Part shown: piece after piece, positions 17,523-39,318 of the stretch
How the letters are laid out: each line of letters starts with the position of its first letter
Numbering within the stretch: position 1 is the stretch's first letter
Assembly (NCBI RefSeq): GCF_947072685.1
Contig: NZ_CAMTIK010000021.1
Span: 1-39,504 of the forward strand
Length of the DNA stretch: 39,504 nucleotides
Origin: an uncultured Cetobacterium sp.
GTDB lineage: Bacteria > Fusobacteriota > Fusobacteriia > Fusobacteriales > Fusobacteriaceae
Direction: 5' to 3'
Translations under genes and position numbers: made by a program
The notes under the pieces: model-generated
Seen by the model: the letters and a program-made list of their open reading frames with translations, nothing else
What the model was told of the DNA's origin: nothing
Database searches by the model: none

Positions 17523-17566
17523 AATTCCATTTCTGACAGCTAAATATATTACAAAAAATAAAAAAA

Positions 17567-17683
17567 CTTGGCAACTACCTATCCTTCCAGAGGGCTGCCC
17601 CCCAAGTACTTTCGGCGTTTACGGGCTTAACTTCCAGGTTCGAAATGTGACTGGGTGTACCTCCGTAGCTATCGTTACCAAGC
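17567..17683 (-). rRNA. rrf: 5S ribosomal RNA, solitary gene
   Basis: On the minus strand, starting at 17683, the ~117-nt sequence has the 5S helix I (CTTGGTAAC with GTTGCCAAG, one G-T pair). It has the conserved loop region TTTCGAACCTGGAAGTTAAG, the CGCCGAAAGTACTTGGGGGG segment, and a 3' half ending GGATAGGTAGTTGCC. A T-tract follows the 3' end and, with helix I, can serve as the terminator. No 16S or 23S gene is adjacent: clpB lies upstream on the same strand and sepF converges from the other side. The exact ends are inferred from helix I. Confidence 0.95.
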
Positions 17684-30483: not shown

Positions 30484-30523
30484 AAAAAATAAAAAATGGA
30501 TAAGGTTATTAACCTGTATCCAT
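30484..30523 (-). terminator. Intrinsic terminator of the GrdX-like gene
   Basis: On the minus strand, ATGGATA and AGGTT (one bulged C between) pair with AACCT and TATCCAT around an AAT loop, followed by TTTTT-A-TTTTTTT. It starts at the stop codon of the GrdX-like gene and separates it from rapZ. Confidence 0.88.
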
Positions 30524-30906
30524 CACATAAAATTGATCTTATCAATGCTATCTCTAATTAAGTTCAAGTCAATAAATCTAAACTCTTCCAGTGAAGTTTC
30601 ATTGGAAAGTTCCTTAGGTGTAAAATTAACTTTTGTTATCAAATCTAAAACACCTAATATTATTTTAATTGAATGAGAATTATCTTCAAGCTGATTATTT
30701 GTAATCAAAATAGATTTAAAAGGGTTATCTTGATTTTCTAAATTATATAAAATAGGATCACTTAAAAGTCTGTGTCCCTCTAGACATTTAGACTCTATAA
30801 AATTTAGAACATCTTCAATACTGTAATCTTTTAAAAAGACAACCTCATCGGTTTCTTTGAAAAAGTTAAAAACTTTATTATTGTTTGTAATTATTTTATA
30901 ATCCAT
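30523..30906 (-). CDS. GrdX-like protein of unknown function
   Basis: The 127-residue protein resembles GrdX, a protein encoded beside glycine/sarcosine reductase operons in clostridia. The resemblance covers the N-terminal YKIITNNNKV, the central GHRLLSDPILYN and NPFKSILITN, and the following SIKIILGVLDLI. The biochemical role of GrdX is not known. Here it is a single-gene unit with its own promoter and terminator, and no selenoprotein reductase gene is nearby. GGAGG precedes the ATG. The family call is from memory of the motif and is moderately certain. Confidence 0.6.
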   Translation of the reverse strand: MDYKIITNNNKVFNFFKETDEVVFLKDYSIEDVLNFIESKCLEGHRLLSDPILYNLENQDNPFKSILITNNQLEDNSHSIKIILGVLDLITKVNFTPKELSNETSLEEFRFIDLNLIRDSIDKINFM

Positions 30907-35300: not shown

Positions 35301-35551
35301 CGGTAAGAAAAATTAACGAAGCAAGTCCTAACATATTGGATCTATTGAAAAATAGAGAGGTTGACTTATTGGTAAACACACCGACTAAGGCAAATGATGC
35401 TCAAAGAGATGGTTTTAAAATAAGAAGAACTGCAATAGAGTATGGAGTAGAAGTTTTAACTTCAATTGACACTTTAAATGCGGTAATAAGAATACAAGAA
35501 AAAAATGTAGATAAGATGAATTTAGATGTATTTGATATTTCAGAAATCTAA
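32345..35551 (+). CDS. carB: Carbamoyl-phosphate synthase large subunit
   Basis: CarB makes carbamoyl phosphate from bicarbonate, ammonia and two ATP. The 1068-residue length is standard. It contains two homologous ATP-grasp halves: [20 protein letters not shown] near residue 14 and [19 protein letters not shown] near 560, each followed by an EINPR/EVNPR metal site. A C-terminal MGS-like allosteric domain follows (from about 930), with [10 protein letters not shown] and [16 protein letters not shown] precedes the ATG. I see no hairpin terminator right after its stop; the riboswitch promoter begins within 10 nt. Confidence 0.97.
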
Positions 35552-35558
35552 AAAAAAA

Positions 35559-35587
35559 TTGACAAAATAAAAAAAAGGGTATACACT
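35559..35587 (+). promoter_or_regulatory. Promoter of the cation-ATPase riboswitch leader
   Basis: TTGACA (35559-35564) is followed by TATACA at 15 nt or TACACT at 17 nt (within 35580-35587). It precedes the riboswitch by about 30 nt and begins just after the carB stop codon. Confidence 0.7.
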
Positions 35588-35615
35588 TTAGAAAAAAAGA
35601 ATACTTATCAGTAAT

Positions 35616-35707
35616 GCTGAGAGGGAGTAGTTATTAAGTATAGTGTCAACATCTCGATTCGAAAGAATCTGGTGCTATACGCCTGTGAGGGTGACAAGAC
35701 TTTTAGC
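35616..35707 (+). ncRNA. yybP-ykoY (manganese) riboswitch aptamer
   Basis: P1 forms between GCTGAGAG (35616-35623) and CTTTTAGC (35700-35707). The conserved GGGAGTAG follows the 5' strand of P1. An inner stem GTATAG/CTATAC (35638-35643 with 35675-35680) encloses GTGTCAAC, a GATTC-GAAA-GAATC hairpin and CTGGTG. The 3' side has GACAAGAC. These conserved blocks and the P-type ATPase gene downstream match the yybP-ykoY class, which senses Mn2+. The 3' strand of P1 is shared with the terminator that follows, so Mn2+ binding should favour read-through (ON switch). Confidence 0.85.
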
Positions 35708-35741
35708 GTGGGTTTTCACCTACGCTAAAAGTCTTTTTTTT
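35697..35741 (+). terminator. Riboswitch-controlled terminator before the cation ATPase
   Basis: AGACTTTTAGCGT pairs with ACGCTAAAAGTCT (apical part GGGTTTTCACCT), followed by a run of T. The 5' arm includes CTTTTAGC, the 3' strand of the riboswitch P1, so the two structures are mutually exclusive. Confidence 0.92.
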
Positions 35742-35769
35742 ATTTTTTATTAAAAGATATGGAGGAAAG

Positions 35770-38376
35770 ATGAAGGATTTTTATTCTAAAAGCAAAGAGA
35801 GTTTGATGAATTATTTTAGCACGTCATCTGATGGGCTAAAAAGCGAAGAATTGGAAATTTTAAAGGAGAAATATGGAGAAAATCAACTGAATAGTAAGGA
35901 GAAAAAAACAGCCTTCAAAGTTTTTTTAGAACAGTTTAAAGATTTCTTAGTAGTTATACTTTTGATAGCGGCCGCAATCTCTTTTATCTCGGGAAATAAA
36001 GAGAGTACTATAGTAATTTTAGCTGTAATAACAATGAACGCTGTACTAGGAACAATTCAACATGTAAAGGCGGAAGAATCTCTTGAAAGTCTAAAGAAGA
36101 TGTCTTCTCCTAGAGCACGAGTAATAAGAGATGGAAGAAAGCAAGAAATCAATTCTTCCGAGCTTTTACCAGGGGATATCGTTTTGGTTGAAGCTGGGGA
36201 TGTTGTTCCAAGTGATGCAAGAGTTATAGAATCATACTCTCTTATGGTAAATGAGAGCTCTTTAACTGGAGAATCGGAGAGTGTTGAAAAGGTAGCTAGT
36301 ATTTTAGATGATGAAAAGTTGACTGTAGGGGATCAAAAAAATATGGTTTTTTCCGGAAGTTTAGTAACCTACGGAAGAGGACAACTTCTAGTAACAGCTA
36401 TAGGAATGGAAACAGAGCTTGGTAAAATAGCATCACTTCTAGATAATACAGAGGAGAGTGCTACTCCGCTTCAAAAATCATTAGAAAAATTTGGGAAAAA
36501 ATTATCGGTAGCAATTATACTGTTATGTATAGTGGTGTTTTTCATGAGTGTGGCTAGAGGAGAGAATACACTTGACTCACTTATGTTTGCAGTAGCACTA
36601 GCTGTGGCTGCTATTCCGGAAGCATTGGGGTCAATAGTGACAATAGTTTTAGCTATAGGGACACAAAAGATGGCAAAAGAGAATGCAATCATAAAAAAAC
36701 TCCACTCTGTTGAATCGTTGGGATGTGTGTCTGTGATTTGTTCCGATAAAACAGGGACATTGACTCAAAATAAAATGACAGTAAAAAAGATTTATGTAGA
36801 TGGAAAAATAGTAGAATCTGAAAAGATATCATTAGACAATACTTTAGAAAAAGAGCTATTAAGAAGTGCACTTCTTTGTAGTGATGCTGTAAGCCATGAG
36901 GGAGAGGAAATTGGAGATCCAACAGAGGTAGCTTTAGTAAATGTAGGGCATATGCATAATCTGAAAGAGGTCAATATAAGAAAGGAATACCCGAGAATAG
37001 AGGAGTTACCTTTTGATTCGGAAAGAAAATTGATGAGTACTACTCATGAGATAGATGGGAAATATTATCTTATAACTAAAGGGGCTCCAGATGTAGTTAT
37101 CGATAGAGCTAAATACATAATTAAAGAGAATGGTGATTATAAGGAGATTGGATTAGGAGAGATAGAAGAGATAAAGAACGCAAATATAAAATTATCAGAA
37201 AGTGGTCTTAGGGTGTTAGCTTTTGCTATAAAAGAGATAGACAGAAAGCAAGAGATAAATTTTGATTTAGAAAAAGAGTTTGCTATAGTTGGGTTGATAA
37301 GTATGATTGATCCGCCGAGAGAGGAATCAAAAAAAGCCGTTGAAGATTGTATAAAAGCTGGAATAAAACCAGTTATGATAACAGGTGATTATAAAGTTAC
37401 AGCAAAGGCTATAGCTAAGGAGATTGGGATATATAAGGAGGGAGATGAAACTTTAAATGGTGTTGAAATTGAAGTTATGTCAGATGAGGAATTGATAAAA
37501 CATGTTCCGAATATCTCAGTATATGCAAGGGTTTCTCCAGAACATAAAATTAGAATAATATCAGCTTGGCAAAAATTGGGGAAAATATGTGCTATGACAG
37601 GGGATGGAGTAAATGATGCTCCAGCTCTTAAAAAAGCTGATGTTGGAATAGCGATGGGAATAACAGGAACAGAAGTATCTAAGGAAGCTGCTTCTATGAT
37701 ACTTACAGACGATAATTTTTCAACAATAATAAAATCTGTAGTAACAGGTAGGAATTTATATGCAAATATAAAGAATTCTATTAGATTTTTATTGTCAGGA
37801 AATACAGCAGGGATACTGGCTGTATTTTATGCATCTCTAATGGGGTTGCCAGTAATATTTGCACCAGTTCATTTGTTATTTATAAATTTATTGACTGATA
37901 GCTTACCTGCAATAGCGATTGGAATGGAACCTTCACATGGAGATGTATTGAATGATAAACCTAGAGAAGCAAATGCTCCTTTGTTAGATAAAAAATTATC
38001 TAGCAGAATTTTGATGGAGGGATTACTGATAGCGATAGCAACAATGGTAGCATTTTACTTAGGTTATAGCAAAGGAAATGCAGCATTAGGAAGCACAATG
38101 GCATTTTCAACACTATGTTTAGGAAGACTTTTCCATGGGTTTAGTTGTAGAGGAAATGGATCAATATTTAAATTAGGAATAACTAGTAATATGTTTAGTA
38201 TCTACGCTTTTTTATTAGGAGCAACACTGTTGTATATAGTCTTATTGATTCCAGCATTTCATGAAATGTTTGCGATTTCAGATTTGACAATTAAAAACTT
38301 TTTGGAAATCAATGTATTAGCGTTTATACCAACATTAATAATACAACTTTTGAAATATATAAAATATGATAGATAA
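35770..38376 (+). CDS. P-type cation-transporting ATPase (P2 type), predicted Mn2+/Ca2+ exporter
   Basis: The 868-residue pump has an N-terminal cation-ATPase domain, the actuator motif TGES (166-169) and the phosphorylation site CSDKTGTLTQ with Asp326. The hinge motif TGDGVNDAPALKKADVGIAMG and ten membrane segments follow. The M4 motif is PEALG (283-287) rather than the PEGLP of SERCA-type pumps. M5 has GNTAG where SERCA has a Ca2+ site I glutamate, and M6 has NLLTDSLPA. These features and the upstream Mn2+ riboswitch suggest Mn2+ (perhaps also Ca2+) export from the cytoplasm. The ATG follows a GGAGG site. Confidence 0.9.
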   Translation: MKDFYSKSKESLMNYFSTSSDGLKSEELEILKEKYGENQLNSKEKKTAFKVFLEQFKDFLVVILLIAAAISFISGNKESTIVILAVITMNAVLGTIQHVKAEESLESLKKMSSPRARVIRDGRKQEINSSELLPGDIVLVEAGDVVPSDARVIESYSLMVNESSLTGESESVEKVASILDDEKLTVGDQKNMVFSGSLVTYGRGQLLVTAIGMETELGKIASLLDNTEESATPLQKSLEKFGKKLSVAIILLCIVVFFMSVARGENTLDSLMFAVALAVAAIPEALGSIVTIVLAIGTQKMAKENAIIKKLHSVESLGCVSVICSDKTGTLTQNKMTVKKIYVDGKIVESEKISLDNTLEKELLRSALLCSDAVSHEGEEIGDPTEVALVNVGHMHNLKEVNIRKEYPRIEELPFDSERKLMSTTHEIDGKYYLITKGAPDVVIDRAKYIIKENGDYKEIGLGEIEEIKNANIKLSESGLRVLAFAIKEIDRKQEINFDLEKEFAIVGLISMIDPPREESKKAVEDCIKAGIKPVMITGDYKVTAKAIAKEIGIYKEGDETLNGVEIEVMSDEELIKHVPNISVYARVSPEHKIRIISAWQKLGKICAMTGDGVNDAPALKKADVGIAMGITGTEVSKEAASMILTDDNFSTIIKSVVTGRNLYANIKNSIRFLLSGNTAGILAVFYASLMGLPVIFAPVHLLFINLLTDSLPAIAIGMEPSHGDVLNDKPREANAPLLDKKLSSRILMEGLLIAIATMVAFYLGYSKGNAALGSTMAFSTLCLGRLFHGFSCRGNGSIFKLGITSNMFSIYAFLLGATLLYIVLLIPAFHEMFAISDLTIKNFLEINVLAFIPTLIIQLLKYIKYDR

Positions 38377-38508: not shown

Positions 38509-39318
38509 ATGAAAAAAATTCGATTAACATTGTTTTTTTTACTTATTATTGTTTTGTTTGTTTTAGGTGGGTGTAAAAGTTCTGCTACAAAAGATGATTC
38601 ACCAGTTAAAATTGGAATTTCATGGGAAAGAGAATTTCCTAAAAATGAAGTACCAGAAGATGTTCAAGTATATATAGATTCTATAAAAAGAGCGCATGCT
38701 ATTCCGGTATTGCTACCACGAATTACGAATGAACAAGAAGCATTAAATGCTTTAAAAACGGTTGATGCGCTTGTTTTAACTGGTGGAGAAGATATCGATC
38801 CAGTTTACTATTCTGAAAAACCACATAAAAACTTAGAAGAGTTAAAAAATGATCGTGATATTTCTGATTATTGGTTATTGAAAGTTGGTTTAAAAGAAGA
38901 TTATCCAATTTTAGGAACTTGTCGTGGAATGCAATTCTTAAATATAGTTCTTGGAGGCACACTGTATCAAGATTTACCAACTGAGTATATTTCTAATATT
39001 TCTCATAGAGACCCTAAAAAAGTTGATTTTGCCCGACATATTATAAAGGTAACGGATACTAACTCGAATTTGTTCTCAATGTTAAATGTTAACAAAATAA
39101 CTGTTAATTCTTGGCATCATCAAGCTGTTGAAAGACTTGGAAAAGGATTGAAAGTTGTTGCCCTTTCTCCAGATGGTATTATTGAAGCTGTTGAACTTGA
39201 GAGTGCTTCGTTTGTTGTAGGTGTTCAATTTCATCCAGAGTGGCATGTTGTTGAAAATGAAAATGAATTTTTACCAATTTTCTTAGGACTAAAAGAAGCA
39301 GGACTAAAGAATAGATAA
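38509..39318 (+). CDS. Lipoprotein with a class I glutamine amidotransferase (peptidase C26, PuuD-like) domain
   Basis: The domain family includes gamma-glutamyl-GABA hydrolase (PuuD) and gamma-glutamyl hydrolases. In the 269-residue product the triad is present: nucleophile Cys138 in LGTCRGMQ, with His242 and Glu244 in FHPEWH. ALVLTGGEDIDPVYY is the family's N-terminal motif. Unusually, the protein starts with a lipoprotein signal (lipobox VLGGC, Cys22), so the enzyme should act outside the cytoplasm on gamma-glutamyl compounds. Five of its ten Arg codons are CGA/CGT, while the neighbours use AGA almost throughout, which suggests a different origin. GGGGAGG precedes the ATG. The substrate is unknown. 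Confidence 0.83.
   Translation: MKKIRLTLFFLLIIVLFVLGGCKSSATKDDSPVKIGISWEREFPKNEVPEDVQVYIDSIKRAHAIPVLLPRITNEQEALNALKTVDALVLTGGEDIDPVYYSEKPHKNLEELKNDRDISDYWLLKVGLKEDYPILGTCRGMQFLNIVLGGTLYQDLPTEYISNISHRDPKKVDFARHIIKVTDTNSNLFSMLNVNKITVNSWHHQAVERLGKGLKVVALSPDGIIEAVELESASFVVGVQFHPEWHVVENENEFLPIFLGLKEAGLKNR

What the first reader, a model, noticed from the sequence alone, without database searches (positions are those of the whole stretch)
35559..38376. Mn2+ riboswitch predicts that the downstream P-type ATPase is a manganese exporter
The leader has the yybP-ykoY conserved blocks and a P1 strand shared with a strong terminator, which is the standard Mn2+-ON design. Automated annotation would probably call the protein a calcium pump. 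The regulation argues for Mn2+ detoxification.
Basis: partly seen in the sequence, partly recalled or inferred. Interest (0 to 1): 0.5.

Follow-up and report, generated by a model that had tools for sequence, protein, structure and literature searches.

The report
Manganese-type riboswitch before a cation pump
A stretch of RNA in front of a calcium-pump-like gene has the build of a known manganese-sensing switch, so the pump probably expels manganese; this is a sound new example of a published arrangement, although calcium cannot be ruled out from sequence.

Summary
Bases 35606-35716 form a yybP-ykoY-type (Mn2+) aptamer: L1 blocks, an L3 loop with the Mn-sensing adenosine, and a P1.1 switch helix whose 3' strand is also in the 5' arm of an 18-pair terminator, just before an 868-aa P2A ATPase.

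That reflects the model, which also misses E. coli mntP and alx at its gathering score and passes in 0 of 98 genomes of the window's phylum. Thirty-one leaders of related ATPases covary (15 of 29 pairs changed on both sides; 0 of 500 shuffles as high). A model built only from six RF00080-detected leaders recovers mntP and 20 of 20 relatives given, the window weakest (19.4 bits). A lineage model hits 37 of 42 family genomes that carry the ATPase, 0 of 19 without. About 30 of 80 named relatives, mostly Bacillota, show the same pairing.

Mn2+ export is likely but unproven: the cation site resembles the Listeria Ca2+ pump LMCA1, and the pneumococcal MgtA system is reported to respond to Mn2+ and Ca2+. 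New member of a known kind; the by-products are a lineage Rfam does not see and the breadth of the pump association.

The parts
35559..35587 (+). sigma-70-like promoter candidate TTGACA-17-TACACT
   Evidence: consensus match 10 of 12; 5 found in region against 2.2 expected, so weak
35606..35716 (+). yybP-ykoY-type (Mn2+) riboswitch aptamer with flanks, three-way-junction form without a P2 hairpin
   Evidence: R1 89.9 bits (by construction, it is in the training set); R2, trained without any ATPase leader as far as checked, 19.4 bits at 35609-35714, best in window; covariation in 31 leaders
35614..35623 (+). P1.1 switch helix, 5' strand
   Evidence: pairs with 35700-35709; helix 1
35624..35629 (+). 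L1 5' strand GGAGUA
   Evidence: invariant in 31 of 31 leaders
35638..35648 (+). P3.1 5' strand, paired with 35670-35680
   Evidence: 11 pairs, 7 with changes on both sides, 99.4% of cells paired
35649..35655 (+). L3 loop ACAUCUC; A35651 corresponds to the Mn2+-sensing adenosine (A48 of X. oryzae, A41 of L. lactis)
   Evidence: C35650 and A35651 invariant in 31 of 31; published L3 letters from passages in PMC6754395; the correspondence is my alignment
35656..35669 (+). P3.2 hairpin GAUUC-GAAA-GAAUC
   Evidence: read from the sequence
35681..35692 (+). P4 hairpin (GCC with GGU)
   Evidence: helix 5, 98.9% of cells paired
35700..35709 (+). P1.1 switch helix, 3' strand, shared with the terminator
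35696..35745 (+). intrinsic terminator: 18-pair stem 35696-35735 and T-rich tail
   Evidence: (0.1 expected)
35770..38376 (+). P2A-type P-type ATPase, 868 aa, LMCA1-like; probable Mn2+ (possibly Mn2+/Ca2+) exporter
   Evidence: Pfam E1-E2_ATPase, Cation_ATPase_N and _C; LMCA1 E 6.4e-229, 47% identity

Best explanation
The leader is a transcriptional ON riboswitch of the yybP-ykoY (Mn2+) class. When Mn2+ is scarce, the strand CUUUUAGCGU folds into the 18-pair terminator and transcription stops before the gene. When Mn2+ rises, the ion docks loop L1 on loop L3 (contact to A35651), P1.1 is stabilised, the same strand is held in P1.1, the terminator cannot form, and the ATPase is made. The ATPase then expels Mn2+ (perhaps Ca2+ too) at a single site like that of LMCA1. 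Shown here: anatomy, conservation, covariation, shared strand, class membership by model searches, gene association. Inferred: ligand, direction of regulation, and transported ion.
For: 31 distinct leaders of related ATPases align: L1 and the C-A of L3 are invariant, 94.3% of cells pair, 15 of 29 pairs change on both sides against 7.8 in shuffles and 1-6 in slid versions. In 30 of 31 a T-tailed hairpin takes in the P1.1 3' strand; the 31st, L056, had its flank cut short by my extraction. R2, built only from 6 RF00080-detected leaders (sub-cut-off, E 1.2e-7 to 0.0025), hits E. coli mntP (33.8 bits) and 20 of 20 relatives given (19.4 to 53 bits). R3 hits E. coli alx, absent from its training, at 26.7 bits, E 5.7e-5. 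R1 hits 37 of 42 family genomes with the ATPase and 0 of 19 without. A sense-strand descriptor hits upstream of 27 of 80 named relatives, antisense 0 of 80. Two genomes of another family carry it before an ATPase of a different branch. Precedents seen in passages: L. lactis YoaB and C. difficile CD2503, S. pneumoniae MgtA.
Against: No RF00080 hit at any threshold tried. The window is the weakest of the 20 leaders with R2, and a whole-genome R2 search did not list it while listing a 14-bit site. R1 does not find E. coli mntP significantly (13.7 bits, E 1.2) and R2 misses alx. P2 is absent. The cation-site residues compared are those of a Ca2+ pump, and the two motifs I tabulated (M4, M6) do not cleanly separate riboswitch-linked from other pumps. 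Four of 42 family genomes with the ATPase showed no such leader in the flanks read. The genome also holds an MntP-family protein. One review calls these riboswitches 'OFF' switches (PMC11477304), against the ON mechanism in PMC11087558 and PMC9190785.
Confidence: 0.78

Rival explanations
1. The leader is a yybP-ykoY relative but the system is mainly a Ca2+ (or joint Mn2+/Ca2+) sensor and exporter, as described for pneumococcal MgtA/CaxP.
For: A review passage states that Ca2+ binds the S. pneumoniae mgtA aptamer with higher affinity than Mn2+, that Mn2+ activates transcription more in vitro, and concludes that the switch regulates Ca2+ efflux (PMC9495176). Closest solved protein is the Ca2+ pump LMCA1, with one site II-type site and an Arg in place of site I; the Arg is conserved here. 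Two RF00080-type leaders checked in other family genomes precede Na/Ca-exchanger-family genes.
Against: The adenosine that gives Mn2+ its N7 contact is invariant, though this does not exclude Ca2+ since the pneumococcal aptamer is called canonical too. The genome has a separate ATPase (L020) that passes the PMCA-type Ca2+ cut-off and shows no leader.
Confidence: 0.3
2. It is a structured attenuator of another class, resembling yybP-ykoY by convergence, with an unknown ligand.
For: No RF00080 hit at all; P2 absent.
Against: R2 links it to E. coli mntP and R3 to alx. Leaders of two related genes differ by an A-U/G-C exchange at the last P3.1 pair together with the ACA/UCA forms of L3 known from X. 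oryzae and L. lactis.
Confidence: 0.04
3. The stretch is only an intrinsic terminator of the carAB transcript with a chance GGGAGUAG, and the ATPase is expressed independently.
For: The terminator is the strongest structure and carB ends at 35551.
Against: Covariation outside the terminator (P1.2, P3.1, P4), and the element persists where the coding end just upstream is, by eye, not that of carB (L036, L044; L105, L106).
Confidence: 0.02

Closest known systems
S. pneumoniae mgtA (caxP) yybP-ykoY riboswitch and P-type ATPase (NAR 2019, gkz494; not held, known from passages in PMC9495176, PMC9331361, PMC11434433)
   Same: yybP-ykoY aptamer with a three-way junction in front of a P-type ATPase; Mn2+ export reported
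   Different: the window pump falls in a different supported group from the streptococcal loci L164 and L172; by eye those leaders keep a hairpin after L1 and lack a clear P4, while the window has P4 and no P2
L. lactis yoaB riboswitch (Mn2+-ON, transcriptional) and YoaB
   Same: P1.1 shared with an intrinsic terminator (PMC11087558 and PMC9190785 passages); P-type ATPase
   Different: four-helix aptamer, L3 UCA41AU43UC instead of ACAUCUC; YoaB itself was not in my sample
E. coli mntP and alx riboswitches
   Same: L1 letters; mntP has the same UCA-UGG ending of P3.1 and an ACAU L3 (read)
   Different: other genes downstream; mntP has a P2-like hairpin; mntP is described as a translational switch (abstract start of PMC11647493 in a search listing), whereas this one has a terminator
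LMCA1 (lmo0841), Listeria Ca2+-ATPase
   Same: 47% identity, PEAL, M6 N and D, M8 Arg
   Different: known as a Ca2+ pump; whether its gene has this leader was not tested

Membership tests
yybP-ykoY (Mn2+) riboswitch | L1 loop letters GGAGUA with (A/G)AGA | tested here: met
   GGAGUA invariant in 31 of 31 leaders
yybP-ykoY (Mn2+) riboswitch | L3 with the invariable Mn2+-sensing adenosine as third base | tested here: met
   ACAUCUC; C-A invariant in 31 of 31; published ACA48 and UCA41. By count, L3 is 7 bases in 23 and 8 bases in 8 of the 31
yybP-ykoY (Mn2+) riboswitch | P1.1, P1.2, P3.1 helices supported by covariation | tested here: met
   5, 1 and 7 pairs with changes on both sides; the structure was named by me
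yybP-ykoY (Mn2+) riboswitch | three- or four-way junction of P1, (P2), P3, P4 | tested here: met
   P1, P3, P4 present; no P2 hairpin in the 31 aligned leaders; a three-way form is described for S. pneumoniae mgtA
yybP-ykoY (Mn2+) riboswitch | found by a model built from other members only | tested here: met
   R2: window 19.4 bits, E 0.011 in 138 kb, E 0.0031 in the window with filters off, next site 14.6 bits; but not listed in the whole-genome R2 search
yybP-ykoY (Mn2+) riboswitch | Rfam RF00080 gathering score (a library threshold, not a biological criterion) | tested here: not met
   no hit; E. coli mntP reaches 41.6 of 45 bits and neither mntP nor alx passes in the loci fetched
yybP-ykoY (Mn2+) riboswitch | Mn2+ binding and Mn2+-dependent antitermination | not testable with these tools
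   needs in vitro transcription or probing
P2A-type cation ATPase (LMCA1/SERCA/SPCA) | DKTGT, cation ATPase N and C domains, M4 PEAL, M6 N and D | tested here: met
NCBIfam calcium-pump equivalogs TIGR01522, TIGR01116, TIGR01517 | curated score cut-off | tested here: not met
   673.6 of 798.3, 624.7 of 703.4, 483.5 of 507.05 bits
Mn2+-exporting P-type ATPases (YoaB/MgtA) | Mn2+ transport or Mn2+ tolerance | not testable with these tools
   needs an assay; the M4 and M6 motifs tabulated do not settle it

The most novel reading that the evidence does not exclude
The LMCA1-like branch of bacterial 'calcium' pumps may be ancestrally a manganese-detoxification branch: many members sit behind Mn2+-type riboswitches, in the window's phylum and in records named mostly as Bacillota, including Alkalibacterium, whose pump was the closest to LMCA1 of the 80 named ones (64%). 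LMCA1, the model bacterial Ca2+ pump, would then have Mn2+ as a natural cargo.
Probability: 0.2. Interest if true: 0.55.

Novelty: new member of a known kind. Interest (0 to 1): 0.33.

Why it matters
It gives a regulatory reason to doubt the calcium label towards which sequence scores pull this pump, shows a lineage of the Mn2+ riboswitch that the standard Rfam model does not see (0 of 98 genomes of the phylum over cut-off, against 39 of 98 hit by a lineage model), and shows that the pairing with LMCA1-like pumps is common in the named sample, which makes the Mn2+/Ca2+ question for that pump family directly testable.

Tried and rejected
Rfam as a yes/no test was set aside after the E. coli controls failed it. 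In its favour, RF00080 does pass its cut-off in 2 of 14 control genomes (not said which; E. coli, B. subtilis and Caulobacter vibrioides ring at E<=0.01), and L. lactis, home of the crystallised yoaB switch, rings only at E<=10. An alignment with alx (A2) and one with mntP (A4) looked misaligned in P3 and were not used for models; R2 was therefore built from six leaders, four of them near-copies (A5). RNAalifold's own structure paired GGG with UUU instead of forming P1.1; I replaced it by the published topology, so one search counts a structure I named.

A look for a Mn2+-specific signature in the pump covered only the M4 and M6 motifs: PEAL in 15 of 19 riboswitch-linked pumps of the window's phylum, 10 of 30 named riboswitch-linked and 8 of 50 named unlinked pumps; I did not test whether this merely follows relatedness. 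The M6 pattern was unread in 1 of 19, 13 of 30 and 20 of 50. The tree used 27 descriptor labels; R3 later added L122, L137 and L138 and did not find L162, so some 'none' labels there are probably wrong. Label changes on that tree: 20 against 35 in shuffles, so the trait is clustered but gained or lost often. I ran no structure prediction, since LMCA1 structures cover the fold, and no search of the viral, plasmid or phage collections. No call names the window's organism or phylum; that it is Fusobacteriota is my recollection of such sequences, not a result.
Full report
What is there. Between carB (ends 35551) and an 868-aa P-type ATPase (35770-38376) lies a leader that folds as a yybP-ykoY aptamer followed by a terminator. 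In window letters: P1.1 35614-35623 with 35700-35709; L1 GGAGUA 35624-35629 with AAGA 35696-35699; P1.2 35630-35632 with 35693-35695; P3.1 35638-35648 with 35670-35680; L3 ACAUCUC 35649-35655; P3.2 35656-35660 with 35665-35669; P4 35681-35683 with 35690-35692. The terminator stem is 35696-35735 with a T-rich tail. The strand 35700-35709 belongs to both P1.1 and the terminator.

Rfam says no, and why that is not decisive. RF00080 gives nothing in the window at gathering, nothing in 301 bases at E<=10, and in the whole genome only a 7.5-bit site on another contig. As controls I fetched E. coli K-12 mntP and alx: neither reaches the gathering score in those loci; mntP scores 41.6 of 45 bits (E 5.1e-9); alx was not run at the relaxed threshold. 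Over 98 genomes of the phylum RF00080 passes its cut-off in 0 and gives E<=0.01 in 5; in the tool's 14 named control genomes it passes in 2. So the model is strict for this lineage, and the window is far from it even so.

Comparative evidence. The ATPase has a strong relative (E<=1e-150) in 42 of 61 genomes of the family. I read the sequence upstream of one locus from each of these 42 (L002-L012, L032-L062). One search found the motif in 35 of 42, three of them duplicates, giving 32 distinct stretches; the other seven were L052, L055, L057, L058, L059, L061 and L062. L055 and L057 (the latter cut at its 5' end) were recovered by R1, and the genome of L052 by a longer stretch (L108). The last four gave no hit with R3 in the flanks read. 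L060, a form with P2, was left out of A1, which therefore has 31 rows. For the structure I named, 94.3% of cells pair, 15 of 29 pairs have changes on both sides (shuffles 7.8, 0 of 500 as high), and slid versions reach at most 6. The count of further pair types is not exceptional (65 of 500 shuffles as high). The helix P3.2 is out of register in the 8 rows with a longer L3.

Model R1 from A1 hits 39 of 98 phylum genomes at E<=0.01. Comparing: 37 of the 42 family genomes with the ATPase have it, 0 of the 19 without; the other two of the 39 are in another family of the order. In the window's own genome the next site has 19 bits against 89.9. The R1 score of the window is by construction. R1 gives L060 20.0 bits (E 0.028) and mntP only 13.7 bits (E 1.2), so R1 alone does not reach the accepted class.

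Independent test of class. R2 was built from six leaders that RF00080 itself detects below its cut-off, none of them an ATPase leader as far as I looked: the downstream genes of two were checked and are Na/Ca-exchanger-family, two more look alike by eye, two were not examined. R2 hits mntP at 33.8 bits and 20 of 20 relatives given (15 of the 31 A1 rows plus L060, L105, L106, L107, L108); the window is last with 19.4 bits, E 0.011 in 138 kb; alx was missed. With filters off the window site is the best in the window (E 0.0031; next 14.6 bits). The whole-genome R2 search did not list it. R3, from 22 sequences including the window and mntP but not alx, finds alx at 26.7 bits, E 5.7e-5.

Match to crystal-structure detail. 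Passages of PMC6754395 give L3 as ACA48U49ACU52 in X. oryzae and UCA41AU43UC in L. lactis, the third base being the invariable adenosine whose N7 binds Mn2+. The window has ACAUCUC. The two leaders of genome G044 (L107, L108) have UCG-UCA...CCGG where the window has UCA-ACA...CUGG: the closing P3.1 pair is G-C there and A-U here, while L3 takes the other published form. The 31 leaders lack a P2 hairpin; a review passage describes the S. pneumoniae mgtA aptamer as a three-way junction (PMC9495176).

Switch design. In 30 of 31 leaders a T-tailed hairpin takes in the P1.1 3' strand and so competes with P1.1; the exception had its flank cut short. In the window the terminator alone is -26.4 kcal/mol and the P1.1 duplex alone -11.1 (other aptamer helices not counted), which fits the logic described for L. 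lactis, where Mn2+ stabilises P1.1 against the terminator (passages of PMC11087558 and PMC9190785). A C. difficile review words the class as 'OFF' switches (PMC11477304); I follow the mechanistic papers.

The pump. Pfam and NCBIfam place it among P2A/Ca-type ATPases, below every calcium equivalog cut-off. The closest solved protein is LMCA1 (E 6.4e-229; 47% identity). LMCA1 has one Ca2+ site between M4 and M6, with Arg795 in place of site I (PMC11977196 passages); the window shares PEAL, the M6 N and D and the Arg. So these residues do not separate Mn2+ from Ca2+. A second ATPase of the same genome (L020) passes the PMCA-type calcium cut-off and shows no leader; but ATPase L106 of another family, which does have the leader, passes that same cut-off, so the label is not a guide to the ion.

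Breadth. A descriptor (L1 letters plus a P1.1 of at least 5 pairs) hits upstream on the sense strand in 27 of 80 and on the antisense strand in 0 of 80. R2 at E<=0.05 supports 21 of those 27; its one other row at E<=1 is an antisense site elsewhere. R3 at E<=0.02 finds sense-strand upstream sites in 29 of 80: 26 of the 27 plus L122, L137 and L138; it also reports an antisense site in L122 and, at E 0.055, a second site in L139. They include Streptococcus caballi and S. uberis, Enterococcus rivorum, Parvimonas parva and Alkalibacterium subtropicum; most of the rest are titled as Clostridia or relatives. In a FastTree of 107 pumps the window lies in a supported group of 31, of which 25 carry the label.

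Precedent and novelty. L. lactis YoaB and C. difficile CD2503 (PMC11477304 passages) and S. pneumoniae MgtA (PMC9331361 and PMC11434433 passages) are P-type ATPases under this riboswitch. The primary MgtA paper was not held. Searches for Fusobacterium with riboswitch and manganese and Fusobacterium nucleatum with yybP-ykoY listed 9 and 2 papers, none about such an element by title or abstract start; I read none of them, and the genus was my guess at the host. I therefore call this a new member of a known kind.

Noticed in passing
L107:338-1340: In one relative (G044) a second copy of the element (R1 84.1 bits; R2 53 bits) precedes a zinc metalloprotease HtpX gene (NCBIfam cut-off passed). A paper holding HtpX, manganese and yybP-ykoY was listed (PMC10550928, not read).
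   Followed up: partly
L109:383-2600, L110:392-1490: In other family genomes RF00080-type leaders (below cut-off) precede sodium/calcium-exchanger-family genes (for the first gene of L109 and for L110); L109 seems to have two such units in tandem, and L111 looks alike by eye. Another 'calcium' transporter behind a Mn2+-type switch.
   Followed up: partly
L105:1192-4023, L106:539-3382: In a second family the element precedes an ATPase of a different branch (L106 is 32% identical to LMCA1, and passes the PMCA-type cut-off), suggesting the switch was paired with such pumps more than once.
   Followed up: partly
L195 (G000:C13:2537-2986): The window's genome also encodes an MntP-family protein; R3 finds no leader of this class in the fetched flank. 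An Nramp-family importer is at L196.
   Followed up: partly
L012 and L014 (G008:C25:35490-38082): One relative has the ATPase reading frame interrupted while its leader looks intact.
   Followed up: no
window 38509-39318: Peptidase C26-type glutamine amidotransferase with, by eye, a lipoprotein-like start (GGCKS) follows the ATPase.
   Followed up: no
window 30523-30906: Minus-strand gene matching GrdX (NCBIfam, over cut-off). The same window has tRNA genes at 1-489 and a minus-strand 5S rRNA at 17566-17682.
   Followed up: no
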